A DNA stretch of 32,715 nucleotides from a virus. The stretch covers positions 1 through 32,715 of IMG/VR virus record IMGVR_UViG_3300032236_000690. One strand, 5' to 3'. A program made the position numbers and the translations under genes. Below the pieces are notes generated by a model that saw only the letters and a program-made list of their open reading frames with translations, had not been told where the DNA came from and did not search any database. Within the stretch, counting starts at the first letter, position 1, and every line of letters begins with the position of its first letter. Below are positions 6,437 to 29,560 of this stretch, piece by piece.

Positions 6437-7198
6437 TTATGCGGTAAATATTTTACCGTCAACTACACAAGTGTAGTCTCTTGTTATTTGGATTAATTGC
6501 ATGTGTGGATAATCATTGACTACGTGAGCCACTGCAAATCCCGCCTGCCAATTCTTTTGAATTGAATAATCCATTTTATCTTCATCGCAAAGGTGGCCTA
6601 TCTCATATCCACGAAGTTCTTGACCCGTGATATTGTATGTTTGATAATAGGCTCCCATGCGGTGAGAGTGTCCACGAACTAGAGATACTCCCCAGTTGTT
6701 TACGTCATTACGTACAGATTCTCCAGAGTGCTTAGAAATGGACTCACCGTGGTGACCATACATATCACCAAAGCGTTTAACAGGTGGCTCGTTATATTCG
6801 TGCCAGTTAATGCCATGCTTTTTATATTCATAGAGTGAATCTGGGGTAATGAATTCTAGAAATGCTGGAGCCTTCTTTGCTAAGTAATCACCATGTCTTG
6901 TCCAGCCGTGATTACCGTCGTGAAAATGAATATCTGTTTCTGATCCTGTTGCACTTCTTAAATCTGATAAGAAGTTTCTTGTTCCTGTGACTCCGCCGTC
7001 ACTTACTGGTATTGAAAATTCTGCAGGATATTCTGCTGCCCAGCGTGATGTTGAATCTGCATCATCAATATCGCCAAGTAGGTCAACTGCATCTGGTTTA
7101 AACCACTTCAACACCTTCATGAATAGTTCTACTTTTCTTGGATCATGGCGAGGGAAGTGAATATCAGATACCATCATCCATTTTAAATCATTAGTCAT
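6437..7198 (-). CDS. calcineurin-like metallophosphoesterase
   Basis: A 253-residue two-metal hydrolase of the calcineurin-like superfamily, with the motifs in canonical order: D12-x-H14 (SDIHF), G42-D43 in LLGDIDDAD, GNH at 95-97 in HDGNHGW, H149/H150 in YGHHGE, and GHSH at 176-179. These bind Fe/Mn/Zn and cleave a phosphoester. The substrate (nucleotide, nucleic acid or protein phosphate) cannot be told from sequence. No signal peptide is visible, so it likely acts in the cytoplasm. It overlaps the end of the upstream dioxygenase gene by eight bases. The family call is firm and the role in the infection cycle is unknown. Confidence 0.88.
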   Translation of the reverse strand: MTNDLKWMMVSDIHFPRHDPRKVELFMKVLKWFKPDAVDLLGDIDDADSTSRWAAEYPAEFSIPVSDGGVTGTRNFLSDLRSATGSETDIHFHDGNHGWTRHGDYLAKKAPAFLEFITPDSLYEYKKHGINWHEYNEPPVKRFGDMYGHHGESISKHSGESVRNDVNNWGVSLVRGHSHRMGAYYQTYNITGQELRGYEIGHLCDEDKMDYSIQKNWQAGFAVAHVVNDYPHMQLIQITRDYTCVVDGKIFTA

Positions 7199-7733
7199 TA
7201 TTTTCCTTTTTAGTTACGAAACACTGTAAGGTGATTCTAAATTTGTCATCTGCTTTAACTGGGCTAGTACCGTGTAATGTTTTTGAATTATTAACTATTG
7301 CTAAATTAAATGAAGGAAGAACAGATTTCCATTCTTGTGATTCTTCATCAAACCAATTAAACATTCCGCCATCATTATATTTCCATTCTTTATTTAAATA
7401 AATAGTAATAGCCTTTCCATGTGAATCTGAATGTTCTGCTATATAAGAATTTTTTGTCCAAACATAAAGCATAACTTGCCCATATGATGGTAAGTTATCT
7501 TCTTGTAAATTTATAATTCCTTGTTGTTCCATTTGAACATTAAATTGATCAACTAACTCTTGAGGTATTCTTATACATATTACTGGAGCACTATCATGAA
7601 CAATATAATCATCCCACGCTTTATTTAGGTAAAAAGAAACAGGATCTTTTCTTTTGCTCCTTACCGTGTCATCTGCAAAATTATATAAAAACGTCGCAAA
7701 ATCTTCAGTTAAAACTGATTTGTATTGTTTCAT
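7191..7733 (-). CDS. 2-oxoglutarate/Fe(II)-dependent dioxygenase, prolyl-hydroxylase-like
   Basis: A 180-residue protein with the double-stranded beta-helix signature of 2-oxoglutarate oxygenases. The iron ligands are H101-x-D103 (AEHSDSH) and distal H154 (TLHGTSPV), and R166 (KFRITLQ) sits where the 2-oxoglutarate-binding arginine is expected. The P4H-like subfamily is suggested by GGMFNWFD and the HG/R spacing. It would hydroxylate a protein or nucleotide substrate using O2. It follows a strong-looking promoter (TTGACA-18-TACAAT, 7756-7785) and is coupled to the phosphoesterase gene. It differs clearly from the second dioxygenase in this block, so it is not a simple recent duplicate. Confidence 0.82.
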   Translation of the reverse strand: MKQYKSVLTEDFATFLYNFADDTVRSKRKDPVSFYLNKAWDDYIVHDSAPVICIRIPQELVDQFNVQMEQQGIINLQEDNLPSYGQVMLYVWTKNSYIAEHSDSHGKAITIYLNKEWKYNDGGMFNWFDEESQEWKSVLPSFNLAIVNNSKTLHGTSPVKADDKFRITLQCFVTKKENND

Positions 7734-8848: not shown

Positions 8849-9466
8849 TTAATGAATCCAGTTAACTACTGTATATCGAACGCCCTCTGTAACCTCATGA
8901 ACTGTGTGTGCATAAGGATAGTTTGAAGGAAATACAACCATGTCTCCTGCTTGTGGCTTAATCTTTAAATTAAACCTAGGGAACTCTATTTCCCCGCCAA
9001 CATAATCATCATTTAAATAATATGAATATGAAATTCTTCTATGATAGGCTTCACAATCATCCATGTGATTATGGAAAAAATGTCCTTTACCATATCTTAA
9101 AATTTGATAAGAGTCGTGAATATCAAAATCAATATGAAACTCTCTCTTGTAATCCATTTCTACTTCACGCAATGTTTCAAACAACATATTGTTTCCATGT
9201 CTTACAAAACTATCAAAATCATCAAATCTATTTCCATTGTAAGGAGTTAATTCTCCAAAATATGGTATTCCAAATGTGTCAACATCTCTAACTTGTGTGT
9301 TAGTAACATCTTGTAGTTTATTTTCATATTCATTAATAACACTACCCTTGTTCCATTTAAAAAGATCTTTTGAAGCACCTTCTTCTAGGAAATCAATAAA
9401 CTGTTGTCTTTGAGGCATTACATTTTTATAAACAATAACGCCTGGTACTAATTCTACTTTTTCCAT
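8849..9466 (-). CDS. 2-oxoglutarate/Fe(II)-dependent dioxygenase, P4H/PKHD-like
   Basis: A 205-residue protein of the prolyl 4-hydroxylase-like superfamily. The catalytic strand order is clear: H134-x-D136 in FFHNHMDD, a typical YYLNDDYVGGEIEFP strand pair (about 149-163), AGDMVVFPS, distal H187 in YAHTVHEV, and R197 in GVRYTVVNW, fitting H-x-V-x2-V-x2-G-x-R. It resembles PKHD-type hydroxylases and many phage 2-oxoglutarate enzymes of unknown substrate. It has an AGAAAG ribosome-site element seven or more bases ahead of ATG 9466. A few genes upstream lies a proline-rich fibre protein, a possible substrate (inference). Confidence 0.9.
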   Translation of the reverse strand: MEKVELVPGVIVYKNVMPQRQQFIDFLEEGASKDLFKWNKGSVINEYENKLQDVTNTQVRDVDTFGIPYFGELTPYNGNRFDDFDSFVRHGNNMLFETLREVEMDYKREFHIDFDIHDSYQILRYGKGHFFHNHMDDCEAYHRRISYSYYLNDDYVGGEIEFPRFNLKIKPQAGDMVVFPSNYPYAHTVHEVTEGVRYTVVNWIH

Positions 9467-9478
9467 GATATATTCTTT

Positions 9479-9625
9479 CTACTTATTATTTTCTTGTTTT
9501 TCATTAATAGAGTTTTGTAACTCTGTATACTCAGCACGAAGTACGGCAATTTGTGTTTCATAATTTGAAACAATCTCACCAATACGTTGTTGTAGAGCAG
9601 TAATTATTAGTTCTGCTTTATCCAT
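9479..9625 (-). CDS. 48-residue coiled-coil protein
   Basis: A short ORF starting ATG at 9625 (MDKAELIITALQQR...) and ending at TAG 9479-9481. The whole chain is amphipathic helix with leucine/isoleucine every three to four residues and glutamines, as in a short coiled coil (ALQQRIGEIVSNYETQIAVL). An AGAAAGAA ribosome-site element lies about seven bases ahead, the same type as before the next gene. The function is unknown. Small coiled coils just after tail fibre genes can be fibre chaperones or trimerising pieces, but this is only a guess. Size, ribosome site and clean packing between neighbours favour a real gene. Confidence 0.6.
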   Translation of the reverse strand: MDKAELIITALQQRIGEIVSNYETQIAVLRAEYTELQNSINEKQENNK

Positions 9626-9637
9626 TTGTTATTCTTT

Positions 9638-9898
9638 CTATTTGTTGTTTGAAGCAAGGGCTGCTTGCTCTGCTGCTTTTGCAGCATTTAATGTTGTAAG
9701 TTCAGTATTGATTACTGCGCTTTGAGCATCAATATCTGACATTTGAAGTGTAAGAGAATCAATTGTAGCAGTATTTGGAACCGCTGCTGCATTTGCTTCC
9801 TTAACACTTAATTCAAGATTATATCTTGTATATTGAAGATTCTTTAAATGTTGATCTACAATACTAATTTTTTCATCAGTAGTTAATTCATTTGACAT
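9638..9898 (-). CDS. 86-residue coiled-coil protein following the fibre gene
   Basis: An 86-residue protein, all helical. Residues about 8-32 (EKISIVDQHLKNLQYTRYNL) and 40-84 (SLTLQMSDIDAQSAVINTEL, then an alanine-rich helix) form two heptad-like stretches with a proline/asparagine break. No membrane or enzyme motif is visible. It has the strongest ribosome site of this block, AGGAGG nine bases before ATG 9898, and its own promoter at 9919-9947. High expression is therefore likely. It could be a fibre-associated or virion protein, but I do not recognise it. Confidence 0.7.
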   Translation of the reverse strand: MSNELTTDEKISIVDQHLKNLQYTRYNLELSVKEANAAAVPNTATIDSLTLQMSDIDAQSAVINTELTTLNAAKAAEQAALASNNK

Positions 9899-9918
9899 TG
9901 TATATTGCCTCCTTTCTT

Positions 9919-9947
9919 ATTATAGCACTTAATTTAAAATCTGTCTA
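9919..9947 (-). promoter_or_regulatory. promoter-like site before the 86-residue coiled-coil gene
   Basis: TAGACA (9942-9947), 17 bases, TATAAT (9919-9924) with an extended TGC (TGCTATAAT). It is nearly the same as the SSB promoter. It lies 21 bases before ATG 9898 and overlaps the end of the fibre gene. Confidence 0.6.
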
Positions 9948-12900
9948 TATGGCCTTTGCGTTGTGTACTATATATCCATCAGCATAGAACAAATCGTTTG
10001 TTTCCACGTCAATATCAACAACCATTACCATCTTTTCTACTCTTTCTATTGATGTAATCTCTATTTCATTATTTTGTGAATCCATAAGCATGTTGCCAAC
10101 TTCTAGATCCCTTGTTTGTACAAATTGCCAAACATTGTCTACTCCAGTAAACAAGAAGTGCTCTTGAGTTACTTTTGTTGTACCATTAATTAAGTAATAA
10201 TGATCTTCAACAATGTGTCTAATGTTTGTAACCGTTGTGTCTTCAATTGTTGTTTCAAATGGATCTGTAAGTGACCAGGCACTGGCTGGGTACCATTTAA
10301 CTATGTTTTCTCCATTTGGATATGTAGGGATAACTGCTGCCTTAACTGTTTGTCCAATTGTAAGATTTTCAATGTTAGTTAAAGTATTATCTGATAATAA
10401 CACTTGAGTTCCATAAGCAAAACATCCTCCACCGCCACCCACTGGAGAAACACCTACAGGAGAAACACCTACAGGAGAAACACCGCCCACTGGGATAACT
10501 CCTACTGGAAATACTGGAGACACTCCCACGGGTGATACCCCTACTGGTGATACGCCAACGGGTGAAACACCTACTGGTGATACGCCTCCTACTGGAATAA
10601 CACCAACTGGTGATACTGGAACGCCACCTGGGAAAGTACTTACTGGGAATACTGGTGAGACGCCAACTGGTGAAACACCTACTGGGGACACACCTACTGG
10701 GGACACACCTACTGGGGACACACCTACTGGGGAAACACCAACTGGGGATACTCCTGCAGGTGTATATGTAAGTGCAAATGGTCCACCAGTAGCACTTGTT
10801 GATTTTGATGTTGGTGTAACATTGTTTGATCCGCTTAAAGTTCCACCTGTTCCATTTCCACCACCATTTACATCAGACCACGCTGAAACTCCAACTACTG
10901 TAACTTTTAAACCAGCGGTTGCAAAAGTAATTGATGTTGCGGTTGTATAACCATCATAATATGTTGATCCTACAGAGTAATAATAGTAATAACTTGCTGC
11001 ATTTGCTGATGCGCCCCAACTTATTGTTGCCTGTGTTGTAGCATTATATGCATAAACAGTTGCAGATTCATTTCCACTTTTTGAATAACTCCATGTATCT
11101 GAAGTACTTGTTCCAGTATTAAATAAACTTGAATTAAAAATACCGCTTACCTGATCTGCATAAGATGTTGCATTACTTGCAGAATTCCATGTTACTGTCA
11201 TTACATTGCTTGTAGATCCAGAAATACTAATACCCGCACCCGAAGGCCAAGAAGGGGTTGCCGTACTATCTGATACTGAATAACTAAACGCTCCTGGTGT
11301 GATATATGGTGTACCAGTTATAGATGCTGACTGTAGTGTATACCCTGGTAATTTAGCACTTACTGAAATTGTTGCAGAAGAGTTATTACTCATATTTGCA
11401 ATAGTTACATTTTGACCATTTCTAGTAATGCTCGGCGTTGTATTAGATGTTGTGCTTGAAACAGAAAGAGTGTATGTTGCAGTTGAATCATAATTAGTAA
11501 TAGAGAATGAAAATCCAGCAGATGCTGTCGTAACAGAACTTAATGTTGGTGTTGTTCCAGTTAATTCATAAGATTGAATAGAGCCGTATCCAGCAGAGAT
11601 AAGAACCGTATTTGATCCAGTTGTTGAGTATCCGCCACTATAAAAATAATAAGTTGTTCCATTATAGCCAAGAACTGTGTCTCTTGTAGCAAATTGATCT
11701 GCGGGTGATGATACATCTGATGCAGAAATTGTATATGGTGACGTTGTAGAAAAAGCACCTTGAACCCCGCCAAAATAAGATGTAGTAGATCCTAATAGTG
11801 CTGTTGATGTAACTGTGCCATAATTATAAGAACCAGAACCAAAATAGATCTTAGAGTTATATGCTCCAGTGCCAGATATACTTGGATTTGAAATTACAGT
11901 AGGTGCTGGATATGTAAAAGGCCCAAGTGCAGATGATGAGTATGCACTTATGCTTGCACCATTTGGATAAGAGTTATATGCAATAACTCTAAAGTCTAAC
12001 TTTTTACCTTGATAATCACTTGTGACAGTCCAATCATAATATGAGTTTGCTTGATTGGTTGCATTAAACACATTTGTGCCACCAGCATCTTGCTTATCTA
12101 AATAATAGTCAAATGAAGATGGAGAGTTTGTCCATGTTCCCGCATACAATCTGTAAACTGCTCCTACTTGATTTGCCGTACCTGATTGTAATACTGCATA
12201 AGGTTTAGTAACATTTACTGGAATTGGTGCTGTTACCGCATTAGTAGAAGCACTTGTTACTGAAACACCTGAAGGCGCACCAGTATTTATTGCTGTAACA
12301 ACAACATAAATTGTTTTACCGTTATCTGAAGATTGCACAGTATATGAAGAACTTGTTGCTCCAGAAATTGCACCGCTAGAGTTATACCATTGATAAGTAT
12401 ATGAATCTGGTATGGTATCTGTTGCAGAGTTCCAGTGTGAAACTGCATTTAATGTAAGACCAATATATGGCAAAAGATTATCTATGTATACATCTACATT
12501 GACTGGTCTATTTTTAATAACTTGATCATATCCATTACTTGAGGCAACATTGCCACCTGAGTTGTTTGTTGCAACTACTCTAAAAATTATATATTTACCA
12601 TTGTCTGCCAAAACTGTTGTATATGTAGTTCCAGTAGCACCTGCAATTGTAGTAAATGTTCCAGTTGGGCTGTCTCCTCTATACCATTGATATGCATAGG
12701 TTATTGTTCCATTAGAGGAGGTCCAGGTACCTTTGTCTCCCGTCAAAGTTGTATATAGTCTAAAACCTGTTATTGATGATGTAGCAGCAGTTCCTGAAAT
12801 GGTTGGAAGAACATTGGCTTCTGGAACTGAATCATAAAATACACGGTACCATCCGCTAGAGAGTTTTATCCAAACACCCTTCATTCTAGTCCAAACATTT

Positions 12901-12974
12901 GCAGCAGTTTTTAATCTAACGTGTGTTGCTCTTGTCCAAGTTGAAGTTCCAGTTTTTGCTCTTATGTAACCCAT
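9945..12974 (-). CDS. tail fibre protein with Ig-like domains, GVSPV repeats and C-terminal Hint domain
   Basis: A 1009-residue virion fibre candidate. Residues 1-48 contain tryptophan-basic repeats ([26 protein letters not shown]). Three bacterial Ig-like domains follow (about 55-155, 160-250, 255-355), each with a YQWY or similar strand and DNGK-type turns. The middle (about 360-735) is beta-rich and Ser/Thr/Tyr-rich. Residues 740-845 are 15 GVSPV pentapeptides in three runs, then GGGGG. Residues 851-1005 form a complete mini-Hint domain: C851 in CFAYGTQ, TQEH block, [19 protein letters not shown] ending at N1005. Only AKAI remains after it. The +1 residue is alanine, so C-terminal cleavage rather than splicing is expected. 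Its ATG directly follows the TAA of the preceding tail gene, with GGAG ahead. Domain calls are strong. Fibre function and processing are inferred. Confidence 0.85.
9960..10424 (-). other. Hint (bacterial intein-like) domain in the fibre gene
   Basis: Residues 851-1005 of the fibre protein, 155 residues with no room for a homing endonuclease. It begins with C851 (block [11 protein letters not shown]), has T-x-x-H in block B (TQEH), and ends with blocks F/G ([21 protein letters not shown]). The next residue is alanine, not C/S/T, so it fits a type A bacterial intein-like domain that cleaves rather than splices. Confidence 0.85.
10441..10755. repeat. 15-base tandem repeats encoding GVSPV
   Basis: Three runs of a 15-base unit: three copies at 10441-10485, five at 10513-10587 and seven at 10651-10755, 15 in all. 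Three units at 10681-10725 are identical, indicating recent slippage. Runs are separated by related sequence encoding FPV and GVIPVGG, itself partly duplicated. Each unit is 15 bases, so gain or loss keeps the frame. Confidence 0.95.
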
Positions 12975-22113: not shown

Positions 22114-22637
22114 TATACCTCCGTAAACTCTATGCTTATGTTAACTAAATCAAAGTCTTTATTTCTTTTATTTACTTCGTAATCAAAATTTGTAATATAT
22201 GTCATGTATACAGGGTTTGTTGTGCTTGTTGATGCACCCTTTGCAGAAAAATAATTAGCCTCATCATAACTTGGAGAGTTTGGGTCGTGAGTTCCATTAT
22301 ATTCTCCAGCGATAATTAACTTAACATATACTGGTGTAAATACATTAACCTCATAAAAAGACTTCATCCATGACCCGCCCTTGTTTCCATCAACGGTATC
22401 ATTTATAGTTTTTCCTCCAACTAAACGTGATGTTGAACTTGGGACTAATTGCCAAGACGTAGTTAACTTATGTTTTCTTGCAATTACGAACCTTCTAAGT
22501 GTACCATCTGCCATACGATTTGTCTTCTCAATAACTTCATATGTTACTTTAATTGGTTGACGATTATGATCGGTAAGTGAATACCAAGTTGTTTGATCTA
22601 AAGATACCTGAACTCCTGCATTAATTGAATATGTCAT
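22113..22637 (-). CDS. distal-tail-like protein
   Basis: A 174-residue protein lying right after the tape measure gene, where distal tail (Dit) proteins are normally encoded. It is beta-rich, with RRFVIARKHKLTTSWQLVPS in the middle and VYMTYITNFDYEVNKRNKDF then VNISIEFTEV at the C-terminus, the latter typical of tail-tube-like domains (edge strand ending in a hydrophobic/acidic tail). It likely forms the ring joining tube to hub. The TAATG overlaps at both ends (22637 and 22113) show strict coupling with the flanking tail genes. Placement supports the call more than sequence. Confidence 0.7.
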   Translation of the reverse strand: MTYSINAGVQVSLDQTTWYSLTDHNRQPIKVTYEVIEKTNRMADGTLRRFVIARKHKLTTSWQLVPSSTSRLVGGKTINDTVDGNKGGSWMKSFYEVNVFTPVYVKLIIAGEYNGTHDPNSPSYDEANYFSAKGASTSTTNPVYMTYITNFDYEVNKRNKDFDLVNISIEFTEV

Positions 22638-25600
22638 TAGCCACCCACCTGTGTAGTTCTTCCACTCTTAGCATTATTTGCTGCAAGTGCTTTAAGAACG
22701 CTATCTGTTAACTGCTTTTGATCAAGATTTGATCCATTAATATTAATAACAACATTGTTATTACTATTATCAATTGTACCAAATTGTGCGGTAGAGCCAT
22801 ATGCTGCAGCAGCAGGAACATCAAAGTTTTTAGGTGTTACTCCCTTAAAGCCTTTATCTGTTGCAAGTTTTGTCATTTCTTTTGTAATCTTGGTTTTATC
22901 CGCTTTTCCAGATTCAAGTTCAGCAACTTTTTGTCTTGCTGCATCAAGAATTTGTTGATCTTTAAATGAAGCAGTATCACGATTATATTGGTCCGTATTG
23001 CCTAGTGCTTGCTGTCTTAACAAGTTAGCCTTTAAGAAATCTCCAGTTGCTGTTGCTTGTTTAATTTGATTTTGCATATCTGTCATTGAGATAGCATAAT
23101 CTTGTTGTCTTTTTGCTTCAGCATTAGAGTCTTGTTGAATCTTAAGTCTTTTTTCCATTGATGCAATATAAAGATTTTCTTTTTTAATTAATCCATCATA
23201 TTGCTTATCTAATGCGGTTGGTCCAGTGCCACCGAGACCATCTGTTCCACCTACATTTGGAACCGTTGTGACAGTTGGCTTTTCAACTACTCCGCCAAGT
23301 TTGTCTAAATATTTTTGATTCTCTGGCTTTGCAAGCCATTCCATAAATGATTTTGTTTTGTCTCCAGCCTTTTGTGCTGCTGCAAATGCTTTGTCTGCTT
23401 CTTGTCTTGCAGCATTAGTTTGAGATACAGATGCTGCTCTCATAACCTTTAATGCTTGAGCCATTGGTAAATTAGCAATCTTCATCATATCAACGCCAAT
23501 TGCCTTCATAGGACCCTTGGTATCAATCATTGCTTGTGCAAGCATCTTTGTTCCACCCGCAGTATTAAACTGAGATTTTGCAAGTGCGTCGCTGACTTCT
23601 TTTACCTTCTTTAAATCAGTTCCAGTACTTAATAAAGTTTTTGCAGTGTTTTCTAATCCAGCACCAGATCCGCCTTGATATACATTAGATGCAAATTCTT
23701 TTTGACCTTGTTCTATTTGCTGATAATAAGCAGTACCTGCTCTTCCGCCATATGCAACTGCTGCATTTGCTGTACCGCCCGATTGCATTGCAGCCATTAC
23801 TCTTGGATTATATGCTTGCTGTTTTAAGAAATTTGTAACACCTTGGCCTTGTGTTCCAACATGCTCTTTTAATGTATTTGCGACTAGGCCTGAATATTGT
23901 CCTTGTCCCGCTGCAGATAATAATGTTTGCATGTCTGCTGCAACTTTTTTAGGATCTGCTCCTTGAGCAACAAGAGCACTTGCTTTTTGTTGAATAGCAT
24001 AAGCAACATCTCCGCCTTTATTCATGCCTTGTATTTTTTTATAAAATTCTTTTTCTTGATCTCCATCTTTAAGTGCATCTAATCTCTTTTTTTCTGCGTC
24101 CGCAGAAGCAACAGAAGCAGCAACTGGAGCCTTTACATTTCCAGCAGCGTTATTTAATGCTGTAATAGAAAGGGTAGCATTATCAATAGTTTCTTTATAC
24201 TTATCCAGTTCGCTTGTGCTAACCTTGAATACAGATTCTGCTTGAGCCTTATGTTCTTTTTCTGCAGCAATTAAATGACCAATCCCAGAAGTTACCAATC
24301 CCAATGCAGCACCCGCTGCTGCTCCCCAAGGTCCGAACATAGATCCCATAGAAGCCATAGATGTTGCTGACTGAACAGCATCTTTAATGCCCCCTGCTGG
24401 AAGAGCATTTTCTGCCATGCTTAGCCCCATAAGTGCTGAAGAACCTAATGCTCTTTTTCCAATACTTACCTGCTTCTTTTGAAGTTTAGTTTGTTCTTCT
24501 TCCGTTGCCTGAAGCAATTTTCCTTCAGACTCTTTTATGCCCTTAATCTTTCCATCAGCCCTATCCTTGGCAAGTTGTTCTTCAACCTTAGATGGACTTG
24601 CTGTGCCATAGATTTCTTTAATTGCAGCATCATCAATTTCTTTTCTCTTTTTTGCATGTGCTTTTGCTGCTGCAACATCAGCAGGATTGAGATTATCAAC
24701 CTTAAGATTTTCTGTTAATGGCAAGGTGCCCGAAACTCTTGCACCAGTTACTTTTTCTGCAACTCTTGACCATTGCGATGTGCCTTTAGGTAACTTTATT
24801 TCACCCTTTTCAACCTTTGAATTAAGATCTTTTAACGCTTCATGATAAAGATTTGTTTCAAGTTTTGTAATAGGCTGTTGTCCACCTACCAACCTTGCTT
24901 TTGCTGCTTTAACTTCTTCTTCCGCAAAGCCTTTATCCATTAAAGTTTTTCCTGCTGTATCTACAGAAGAAGAGAACGCTGATTTTGTAGATGCACCTCT
25001 TCTTGCTCCAGTCAAAAATTCTAAAGCATTGTTTTCTACTGCTGATGATCCTCTAATATTTGCAAGATTTTTCCAATCTTTTGGGGCACCCGTTGCACCT
25101 GGAACTACGTGTGCAAGATCATTTTGAAGCATTGATCTAATTTGTTTAAATGTTGCTCCAACTCCTTGTGCTGCTTCAACAATAATTTTTTCTTGTGTTT
25201 CAAGAGATCCAGATTGAATAATTGATGCTGTTCCAAAACTTCCAAGTGCTGTTGGTCTGCTATATCCACCTGATGTTCCTGTTGCAAAATGTGGAATATT
25301 ATTTCCAAGCAAAGCACTAATAATAGATGGGTTTGCTGCAGTTGCAGATTTAGGTATAACTGCTTCTCCTGGCATAAGCATTGCTGGATAAGAATCTGAG
25401 TTTCCAGATCCTGGGATAATTCCTCCACCTGCAAGTTTAGGTGCTTTAAATGGAATTGTTCTTAATGCTGCTGGTACGCCAACTTCTGCAGCCATTGTAG
25501 CAATAGATGTTGCTGACGCTACCTTTTCTGCAAATGAAGATGTTGCTGCTTGATTCATTGATGCAACCATTCCATCTAACGTAATGGTTAAATCTTTAAT

Positions 25601-27448
25601 TGCTGTATCTAATAAATTTACTGCGTCAACATCATTAATAATTTCTGTACTAAATAATTTTGCTGCTTCTTTTGCTGCTATTGATTCTGGAGTAAATAGT
25701 TCACCAAATGATTTTGCTCCAGTTAATAAGTTTTTAAATGCAAATACACCCTTTAATACGTTACCAATAAGGTTAGCAAATACACCAGTAAGCATAATAA
25801 CAGGTCCAGCAATTGCAACTCCCGCTGCCAAGATACCTAAAATTAATTTAATTGGGCCAGGAATTGCACTAAATGCTTTTGATACCCCATCACCAAACTT
25901 TAAAATAACAGTTGCAAATGACATAATCTTTTCTCCAAGCGGAATAAGATCTGCCTTAATAGTTTCAATTGCTCTTTTAAATTTTCCAGTTACTGATTCT
26001 GTAGAAATTTTCATTTCGTTTGCAGCAACACTTGCAAGATCTGCATTGCTTGCATTCATTAATTCAAATGCTGTTTGCGTCTGGCTTCCTACTTGACCAA
26101 GATTTGCCAACAAAGCAGAAATTCTTGCTTCTTGGAATTTACCAAATAATTTTTCAATAAGTTGTGCTCTTGCAAGTGGAGCAATATTTTCTAATGCTTT
26201 TTGAAGAGTTTGAATCATCAATACTGGATTGCCACCAGTTTTTGTTGCAACATCAGCAATATTAATATTGTATGCTGCAAATGCATCTTTAGCAGCCTTT
26301 GTAGGATTAATAAGCGATGCTAATGCTGATTTAATTGCGTTAGCAGATTGTGCTGCTGGAATACCTGCTTCTTTCATTGCAACCATCATTACAGCAGTAT
26401 CTTTAAATGATCCACCTAATTGTTGAACAATTGGTCCAACTTTTGGAATACCTGCAGCCAAATCTTGAAGGCTTGTTGAGGTTTGGTTTTCAACTGCGTT
26501 AAGGAAGTTAACCGCATTACTTCAGTCTTGCGTACTTAACTTATAAACATTTTGAAGAGAAACTGTTGTTTGCATTGCATCTTGAGTACTCATTTCGCCC
26601 AACTTAGTTAGACGCATTGCTTCTCTTGTTGCCGTTAAAAGATCATTACCAGTTTTACCAGTTGCTGCTAAATCAGCAGCCATAGCAGCAGTATCTTTTG
26701 CTGCAATACCCATAGTTCTTGCTAACTCGACAGCAAGTGCAGTTACATCAGATTTAATTCCATCAAGAACTTGCTTTGTGGGTGCCTGTAATCCAGTTCC
26801 ATAAACTTTTTGCAAGCGTACAAGTTCATCATTTACTTGTTGAAAAGTTGTCATTGCTTGCTTACCAAATAATGTCATTGGTACTGTTAAGCCAACAGTT
26901 AACTGACGACCCGCCCATTGAGTATTCTTACCCCAGTTAATTAAAGATTGCGATCCTTTTTCAACAGCAATGTTATAAAGGTTTTGCATATTAGTTGCAA
27001 TTTGGGTAGACTTTGCAACTTCATTAATCTTGGTAGGCGTGTATACTGAAAATACACCCTGCTTTGTAGGATCTGCTTGAACAATAGAGTTTTGTAGTTT
27101 TGTTTGTTCAATAGCAAGTGCCCTCATTTGGGCTTGTGCTTCTGCAGACTTGCCCTTGATAATAGCAAAATATTCTGTAAGTTTTAACTTACCATTTACA
27201 AGGGCTTGTCCAAATTTTTCTGTTTCTGATTTTAATTGAACTGTTTGTTGCGTAAATTGACCAGTTGAAAGCATCGTTGCTTTAAACGCTGCTTGTGCAT
27301 TATTTAAGTCTTTAACAAGAGATGAACCTAATCCAACTCCAGCAATACTCTTATTTAAAGAGTCAACCTGAGTTTTAAGTGCTGCAATTTGAGTATTGAC
27401 ACTCTTAAAGTCGCCAAGTGCGACAATGTTAAGTTCGACTCTAGCCAT
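22637..27448 (-). CDS. tape measure protein, reading frame interrupted by one TGA
   Basis: The tape measure protein sets tail length and is packed inside the tube. The frame from ATG 27448 to TAA 22637 has 1603 codons, interrupted only by TGA at 26522-26524 (codon 309). Reading is continuous across it: ...YKLSTQD, stop, then SNAVNFLNAVENQTSTSLQD and AGIPKVGPIVQQLGG. This block looks like the conserved TP901-type tape measure domain. Hydrophobic segments lie near residues 520-570 (GPIKLILGILAAGVAIAGPV). GGGIIPGSGNSDSYPAMLMP and PGEAVIPK form the usual tape-measure motif. A coiled coil lies near the C-terminus. At 0.15 nm per residue an intact protein would give a tail of about 240 nm (inference). 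The downstream part has no good start of its own, only a TTG at 26461. Confidence 0.85.
26522..26524 (-). other. in-frame TGA within the tape measure gene
   Basis: TGA at codon 309, in GAC TGA AGT. The frame is intact before and after it, and conserved-looking sequence continues across it. It is either a true nonsense change, an assembly or read error, or a suppressed stop. Confidence 0.85.
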
Positions 27449-29044: not shown

Positions 29045-29560
29045 TTAGAGATATCTTCCTGTTTGTCCATCTACTTCACGGCTATATGAGTATACGATGG
29101 ATATAAGACCTGTCATGAACCCGCCTTCATTTTTAAATGGCTGGACTGGATCTGCGCTTTCAAGATGGAAGAAGTGAAAGGTAAATGGACTATCACTAAC
29201 AAGTTCAAGATTGATTTCTTTGGCTGATTGATCATATCTTCTAAATAGGTCAATCATAAAGTTGATAACTGTCTGGATTTGATTTTCATCTGTTGAGGTT
29301 ACTCCAAAAGACATCATTTCTTCTTGCATCCACCATTGAACTCCGCCATGTCTTTGCAGAATGTCATATGTTAGGTACGGTTTTCCAGGAAGTAGGTTAT
29401 TAAACTCTGGCACTTGTTGGGTTGGGATAATTGGTACTAAAGGGCTAAAGAATCCGTCAGCGTAATAGTCCTGCTCATTAAACAGTTTGGCATTCTGTAA
29501 TTCTTGCCAAAGCACCTTTCTAATATCGTAAGATGCTACCTTTGTGTAATCTGGTGTCAT
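29045..29560 (-). CDS. tail terminator protein
   Basis: A 171-residue protein in the position of the tail terminator (lambda gpU-like), just before the tail tube gene. Features are the N-terminal helix ASYDIRKVLWQELQNAKLFN, a beta strand region with HGGVQWWMQEEMMSF, a helix INFMIDLFRRYDQSAKEI, then strands with FTFHFFHLES and GFMTGLISIVYSYSRE. It would stop tube growth and join the tail to the head. Its ATG overlaps the previous stop by four bases (ATGA). The call rests on gene order and fold-like pattern. Confidence 0.75.
   Translation of the reverse strand: MTPDYTKVASYDIRKVLWQELQNAKLFNEQDYYADGFFSPLVPIIPTQQVPEFNNLLPGKPYLTYDILQRHGGVQWWMQEEMMSFGVTSTDENQIQTVINFMIDLFRRYDQSAKEINLELVSDSPFTFHFFHLESADPVQPFKNEGGFMTGLISIVYSYSREVDGQTGRYL

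What the first reader, a model, noticed from the sequence alone, without database searches (positions are those of the whole stretch)
9960..10424. Tail fibre protein ends in a complete mini-Hint (intein-like) domain
C851, the TQEH block and the terminal VHN are all present, but the residue after N1005 is alanine and only AKAI follows. That suggests autocleavage, not splicing. Hint domains of this type (bacterial intein-like) are known from secreted bacterial proteins. One at the end of a phage fibre, after a repeat spacer and GGGGG hinge, could mature the fibre or attach it to another molecule by thioester chemistry.
Basis: partly seen in the sequence, partly recalled or inferred. Interest (0 to 1): 0.85.

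Follow-up and report, generated by a model that had tools for sequence, protein, structure and literature searches.

The report
Self-cleaving intein-like end on phage fibre
A surface protein of an uncultured aquatic phage ends in an intact self-processing domain of the intein/Hedgehog kind, shared by at least 30 distinct phage proteins, whose anatomy suggests that the phage cuts or covalently links the tip of its fibre to an amine, a chemistry that, as far as I could find, has not been tested in any phage.

Summary
ORF 9945-12974(-), 1009 aa, ends in a complete mini-Hint domain (C851 to N1005) followed only by AKAI. A 17-row alignment folds at pLDDT 91.5. Its best solved matches are bacterial intein-like (BIL) domains: BIL2 of Tetrahymena BUBL1 (Z 20.5) and C. 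thermocellum BIL (Z 19.1).

It is not a one-off. I collected 37 non-identical phage copies. Nearly all share one plan: adhesin-like domains (Ig, FN3, PASTA, BACON, collagen), usually a low-complexity spacer, usually poly-Gly, then Cys1-Hint-His-Asn and a 3-22 residue tail that ends the protein. Cys1, Thr86, His89, His154 and Asn155 are invariant. There is no conserved +1 nucleophile, so canonical splicing is not expected. The new clue is the tail: otherwise variable, it holds a lysine in 37/37 (19.5 expected), while arginine is depleted.

Best reading: a BIL-like domain that forms a thioester at Gly850-Cys851 and passes the fibre's C-terminal glycine to an amine, probably the tail lysine (K1007), as BIL2 does, with Asn1005 cyclisation freeing the tail. 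Fold and residues are well supported; the reaction and acceptor are inferred. Such domains are annotated in databases as 'Hint' or 'intein', but I found no paper describing the architecture or tail lysine.

The parts
9945..12974 (-). 1009-aa putative tail-fibre/adhesin-type virion protein that carries the domain
   Evidence: ORF; directly downstream of a minor-tail gene (PHROG 11445); PHROG 38766 virion structural protein 7e-17 over its C-terminus
10767..12974 (-). N-terminal region, residues 1-736, weakly Ig-like; not related to the N-terminus of the closest Hint relative L001
   Evidence: IG_AIR9 7e-5 and SCAB-Ig 6.5e-4, both under cut-off; blastp finds only an Ig-like ORF in L053, 34% over 140 aa
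10425..10766 (-). Low-complexity spacer (VSPVG repeats), residues 737-850, ending in the GGGGG hinge
   Evidence: Sequence and composition; tandem repeats
9960..10424 (-). Mini-Hint / BIL-like domain, C851-N1005, no homing-endonuclease insert
   Evidence: AlphaFold2 pLDDT 91.5 pTM 0.86; BIL2 Z 20.5, CthBIL Z 19.1; 37 copies compared
10422..10424 (-). Cys1 (C851), predicted nucleophile; preceding Gly850 at 10425-10427
   Evidence: Cys 37/37; Gly at -1 in 36/37 copies
10158..10169 (-). Block B T-x-x-H (T936-Q-E-H939; Hint positions 86-89)
   Evidence: Thr 37/37 and His 37/37
9993..9995 (-). Asp994 (Hint position 144) in block F, near-invariant
   Evidence: 36/37
9960..9965 (-). Terminal His1004-Asn1005 (block G)
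   Evidence: 37/37 each
9948..9959 (-). C-terminal tail AKAI with lysine K1007 (9954-9956)
   Evidence: Lys in 37/37 tails against 19.5 expected; at +2 in 9/11 members of the window's clade

Best explanation
The protein ends in a self-processing Hint domain of the BIL type. Step 1 (inferred from an intact active site): Cys851, aided by Thr936/His939, moves the Gly850 peptide bond onto its thiol, so the flexible poly-Gly end of the fibre is held as a thioester. Step 2 (inferred; the least certain): an amine takes the acyl group. The best candidate is the side chain of the tail lysine, K1007, in the same chain or a neighbouring one, giving a Gly-Lys isopeptide bond as reported for the BIL2 domain; hydrolysis would be the side reaction. 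Step 3 (inferred): Asn1005 cyclises and frees the tail from the Hint domain. The result is a fibre without the Hint domain, whose poly-Gly end is either capped by, or cross-linked through, the short lysine tail. Shown here: the fold, intact catalytic residues, strict C-terminal placement, the poly-Gly junction and the tail lysine. Not shown: any reaction, or presence of the protein in the virion.
For: Fold: AlphaFold2 pLDDT 91.5, pTM 0.86. Best solved matches are BIL2 of T. thermophila BUBL1 (Foldseek 7.9e-10, Z 20.5) and C. thermocellum BIL (5.6e-9, Z 19.1). The family profile also finds them by sequence (BIL2 1e-9, 2lwy 8e-6). Catalysis: C1, T86, H89, H154, N155 are 37/37 and D144 36/37 in relatives as low as about 25% identical. 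Placement: in all 37 the domain ends the protein, with 3-22 residues after His-Asn. Gly at -1 in 36/37, at least GG in 32/37; no conserved +1 nucleophile (A, F, I, Y, V, L, T, M). Tail lysine in 37/37 against 19.5 expected from 268 control C-termini of the same loci; Arg 8 against 15.8; 12/12 after clustering at 50% identity; exactly one Lys in 27 of 32 clusters at 90%. Precedents: BIL2 gives a Lys side chain-to-C-terminus isopeptide bond without ATP (PMC8616854); type A BILs with C-terminal His-Asn and no +1 nucleophile cleave and can ligate by aminolysis of the thioester (PMC4031507).
Against: No biochemical data. The predicted tail is disordered (last block pLDDT 58), and no coordinates were available to measure the Lys-Cys1 distance. 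The lysine position varies (+2 to about +10) between clades. The tail test was devised after seeing the tails, and relatives are not independent, so the probabilities (naive 10^-3.6 at 50% clustering) are only indicative. Block-F Asp137 is not kept in all members (L009, L010, L022, L024). A tetrapeptide cap has no obvious use. Most records are metagenomic fragments, and no virion proteomics was found.
Confidence: 0.5

Rival explanations
1. Plain autocleavage: the Hint domain only cuts itself off (thioester hydrolysis and/or Asn cyclisation) after the fibre has folded, like a removable C-terminal chaperone. The tail lysine has another role, such as solubility or holding the domain inactive.
For: C-terminal, self-removing domains are an established theme in phage fibres: the S74 autopeptidase is described for jumbo phages in PMC7824862. 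BILs produce mainly cleavage products (PMC7664689). The intact active site fits.
Against: Does not explain the lysine in 37/37 tails with arginine depleted, nor why Asn and His at the C end stay invariant when only 3-22 residues would be removed.
Confidence: 0.3
2. Acyl transfer to another molecule: the thioester attaches the fibre tip to another virion subunit or to an amine on the host surface, giving a covalent link (a cross-linked particle or irreversible adsorption).
For: Poly-Gly donor end at Cys1 and adhesin-like N-terminal domains: PASTA, FN3, BACON, collagen. BIL2 is described as conjugating ubl4 to ubl5 and to Ras (PMC8616854). Hog domains use the same first step for cholesterol (PMC7664689).
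Against: No acceptor identified; nothing shows that the domain stays unreacted until adsorption; the invariant Asn is not needed for this.
Confidence: 0.12
3. Pre-toxin-type Hint: the domain releases a C-terminal toxin or effector, as PT-HINT does in polymorphic toxins.
For: PT-HINT (PF07591) is among the Pfam hits: 0.038 for the window; L024 passes its cut-off.
Against: Nothing but 3-22 residues follows the domain in all 37 copies.
Confidence: 0.02
4. A relic of a mobile intein that lost its C-extein and no longer works.
For: Hint fold, His-Asn end, weak intein profile hits.
Against: Active-site residues invariant in 37 divergent copies; same C-terminal place in unrelated proteins; no endonuclease; the conserved poly-Gly and tail lysine are not extein remnants.
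Confidence: 0.03

Closest known systems
BIL2 domain of the Tetrahymena thermophila BUBL1 polyubiquitin locus (PDB 6y75, 6tmm)
   Same: Fold (Z 20.5, rmsd 1.6 A over 137 residues), Cys1, block B His, C-terminal Asn; a lysine is the reported acyl acceptor there
   Different: About 24% identity; BIL2 sits between two ubiquitin-like domains and its lysine lies in the following domain; here the protein ends within 4 residues and the donor is a phage fibre
Type A bacterial intein-like (BIL) domain, e.g. C. thermocellum (PDB 2lwy)
   Same: Fold (Z 19.1), His-Asn end, no +1 nucleophile; Ala at +1 is also reported for the C. thermocellum BIL (from memory of the Dassa 2004 paper, which is not held)
   Different: Known BILs lie in variable bacterial proteins; this family lies at the C-terminus of phage surface proteins, with a poly-Gly junction and a lysine tail, and near-invariant Asp144 in block F
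Hedgehog C-terminal (Hog) autoprocessing domain (PDB 1at0, 6tyy)
   Same: Hint fold (Z about 17.5); C-terminal place; Gly-Cys junction (Hog junction from general knowledge)
   Different: Hog lacks the His-Asn end (general knowledge) and carries a sterol-recognition region; none follows here
'Intein domain' tail proteins of jumbo phage NCTB and PHROG 38766 proteins of Erwinia/Dickeya phages
   Same: Homologous domain at the C-terminus of annotated tail/virion proteins
   Different: Only about 25-40% identical; the Erwinia/Dickeya copies have a short SG or KG junction in place of poly-Gly and collagen repeats in the protein (L002); database annotation only, no functional account found

Membership tests
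HINT superfamily (Hedgehog/intein fold) | Hint fold | tested here: met
   pLDDT 91.5 model; 83 PDB chains at Z >= 8, the listed top 50 being inteins, BILs and Hog
HINT superfamily (Hedgehog/intein fold) | N-terminal Cys/Ser nucleophile and block B T-x-x-H | tested here: met
   37/37
Type A BIL domain | C-terminal His-Asn | tested here: met
   37/37
Type A BIL domain | No conserved +1 nucleophile | tested here: met
   +1 is A, F, I, Y, V, L, M or T; Ala in the window
Type A BIL domain | Closest by fold/sequence to BILs rather than inteins | tested here: inconclusive
   BILs rank first by sequence profile and structure, but the Z margin over DnaB inteins is small (19.1-20.5 against 18.9); no tree was made
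Type A BIL domain | Located in a bacterial protein | tested here: not met
   All 37 copies lie in phage or viral-contig records; two scans of 84,980 bacterial/archaeal genomes with narrow patterns found no relative. Hence 'BIL-like', not filed as a member
Type A BIL domain | Autocleavage / aminolytic splicing activity | not testable with these tools
   Needs expression
Class 1 intein | Cys/Ser/Thr at +1 and flanking exteins of one conserved host protein | tested here: not met
   Ala at +1; no C-extein domain
Polymorphic-toxin PT-HINT | Toxin domain after the Hint | tested here: not met
   4 residues follow; 3-22 in relatives
Hog domain | Sterol-recognition region after the Hint | tested here: not met
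   Protein ends 4 residues after Asn1005
BUBL-type isopeptide-forming BIL (works like, not member of) | Lysine acceptor next to a Gly-Cys thioester | tested here: inconclusive
   Gly-1 in 36/37 and a tail Lys in 37/37; chemistry untested

The most novel reading that the evidence does not exclude
Phages use a dedicated C-terminal Hint domain as an ATP-free ligase: it joins the poly-Gly end of a fibre to a lysine side chain (its own tail, a neighbouring chain, or an outside target), giving covalently capped or cross-linked fibres, or covalent adhesion. This would be a viral counterpart of the BIL2 ubiquitin-dispensing reaction.
Probability: 0.4. Interest if true: 0.85.

Novelty: new variant of a known kind. 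Interest (0 to 1): 0.64.

Why it matters
If true, phage fibres are matured or linked by self-catalysed thioester chemistry, which to my knowledge has not been described for any virion. It would explain a widespread set of annotated but unexplained 'Hint' or 'intein' tail proteins in aquatic and jumbo phages. It would also offer compact natural domains that link a poly-Gly end to a lysine without ATP, useful as ligation tools. The tail-lysine prediction is sharp and can be tested with one mutant.

Tried and rejected
Pre-toxin Hint: no downstream toxin. Canonical intein with homing endonuclease: domain only 155 aa, no +1 nucleophile, no extein. Relic: rejected by invariant active-site residues. 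Chance motif: rejected by shuffles. Alignment of nine divergent relatives gave no searchable pattern, so narrower alignments and a hand-made DNA pattern were used. A single-protein scan and two bacterial genome scans found nothing new; their peptide patterns are narrow, so absence from bacteria is not proven. Megablast of the region against isolated phages: no match. Searches for a paper on C-terminal Hint domains of phage fibres found none in the open library; the key BIL papers (Dassa 2004, Aranko 2013) are not held, so they are cited through reviews. Considered but not done: a tree of the domain against BILs and inteins, a fold of the N-terminal 736 residues, and a measured Lys-Cys1 distance (no coordinates available).

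Full report
WHAT IS THERE. The window is a 32.7-kb uncultured virus record. It encodes a phage with tape-measure, minor-tail and replication genes: DNA polymerase III alpha, primase and DnaB helicase. The ORF at 9945-12974 on the minus strand (1009 aa) is the last of the large tail-type genes. It lies directly after a 1171-aa protein matching a minor-tail family. Its last 159 residues begin [10 protein letters not shown] and end VHN-AKAI-stop. The finding's coordinates 9960-10424 are exactly C851 to N1005. The poly-Gly hinge and the VSPVG spacer (residues 737-850) are also as described.

IS IT A HINT DOMAIN. PHROG 38766, a phage virion-protein family, matches at 3.6e-18. A profile from 16 relatives without the window scores the domain at 8.8e-66 (best shuffle of 5000: 0.024). 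A profile from seven distant members alone scores 7e-33 (best shuffle 0.007). The AlphaFold2 model from a 17-row alignment has pLDDT 91.5 and pTM 0.86. Its best solved matches are the BIL2 domain of the Tetrahymena BUBL1 locus and the C. thermocellum BIL domain, ahead of inteins and Hog. The same two lead in a sequence-profile search.

RELATIVES. Tblastn against isolated phages found homologues in jumbo phages of Erwinia, Dickeya and Yersinia and in NCTB, and a weaker one in Salmonella phage Sen-NF; several are annotated as tail, tail-fibre or virion structural proteins. NCTB has three copies, one annotated 'large intein domain protein'. Scans of viral contigs gave many more. In all, 37 non-identical full-length C-terminal copies, the window's included, were compared. 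Their N-terminal parts differ: PASTA, FN3, BACON or collagen domains. The window and its closest relative L001 share spacer and Hint (67% identity) but have unrelated N-termini. Spacers differ by clade: VSPVG, PPYVPP, YYAAP, VIIATP or PTATPVPT repeats. So the spacer-Hint end behaves like a module. Two scans of bacterial and archaeal genomes found no relative, with narrow patterns.

ANATOMY THAT BEARS ON MECHANISM. In all 37, the domain ends the protein. Cys1, Thr86, His89, His154 and Asn155 are invariant and Asp144 is 36/37. Gly precedes Cys1 in 36/37, and at least two Gly in 32/37. The +1 residue varies (A, F, I, Y, V, L, M or T) and is rarely a nucleophile. The tail after His-Asn is 3-22 residues and differs greatly between clades, yet every one holds a lysine: AKAI, IKQL, FKL, TKVNPG..., VEVDLEDGDKGFSEEGFA, LSAKT and so on. 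Control C-termini of equal length from 268 other ORFs of the same loci predict 19.5 of 37; arginine is seen in 8 against 15.8 expected. After clustering at 50% identity it is 12 of 12 (naive probability 10^-3.6). In 27 of 32 clusters at 90% identity there is exactly one lysine. In the window's own clade it sits at +2 in 9 of 11, where background is 4-10%. The test was devised after seeing the tails, so it is a strong lead, not a proof. The preference for lysine over arginine suggests an amine with a chemical role rather than a charge.

MECHANISM. Known: type A BIL domains have a C-terminal His-Asn and no +1 nucleophile, mostly cleave, and can ligate by aminolysis of the thioester (PMC4031507; PMC7664689). 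BIL2 is reported to form a bond between a C-terminus and a lysine side chain, without ATP (PMC8616854). Inferred for the phage family: thioester at Gly850-Cys851, transfer of the fibre's C-terminal Gly to an amine, most simply the tail lysine in cis or from a neighbouring chain, and release by Asn1005 cyclisation. Rivals are plain autocleavage (0.3) and transfer to another virion or host molecule (0.12). Pre-toxin and relic readings are unlikely. The confidence of 0.5 is for the whole path; that the domain is an intact Hint domain is near certain.

NOVELTY. Hint domains in phage proteins are annotated in public databases: 'Hint domain containing protein', 'Fibronectin type III' and 'PASTA_pknB' entries of uncultured Caudovirales turn up as structural neighbours. 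I found no paper describing this architecture, its spread or the tail lysine, within a library that lacks most subscription journals. I therefore file it as a new variant of a known kind: BIL-like Hint domains at the C-terminus of phage surface proteins. It works like a BIL, but membership in type A BIL is not claimed, because its host proteins are viral and no tree was made.

Noticed in passing
window 22637-27448 (-), TGA at 26522-26524: The tape-measure gene is split by one in-frame TGA (...KLSTQD*SNAVNFLNAVENQT...), same frame on both sides. TGA ends another gene at 29557 (ATGA overlap), so the code is not simply reassigned; read-through, a mutation or an assembly error are all possible.
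   Followed up: partly
window 8849-9466 and 7191-7733 (-); L009, L010, L022/L025, L024; L012, L015, L016: 2OG-Fe(II) oxygenases of the prolyl-hydroxylase type lie close to genes with proline-rich spacers. In L010 one begins within about 50 bases of the end of the Hint gene, and three records with the VSPVG spacer but no detected Hint also carry one. They may hydroxylate the spacer prolines; several other Hint-bearing records have none.
   Followed up: partly
L003:742-1202 (phage NCTB): A stand-alone 'intein domain' ORF with a broken block A but an intact VHN end and the tail KVD, next to two full Hint-ended proteins.
   Followed up: no
L091:1825-3885: A distant relative appears to carry two Hint domains in tandem (HN-KG-CFLKGT...), with no His-Asn at the end of the second.
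   Followed up: no
window 9480-9920 (-): Two short coiled-coil-like ORFs of about 85 and 48 aa, without annotation, lie between the fibre gene and the oxygenase gene.
   Followed up: no
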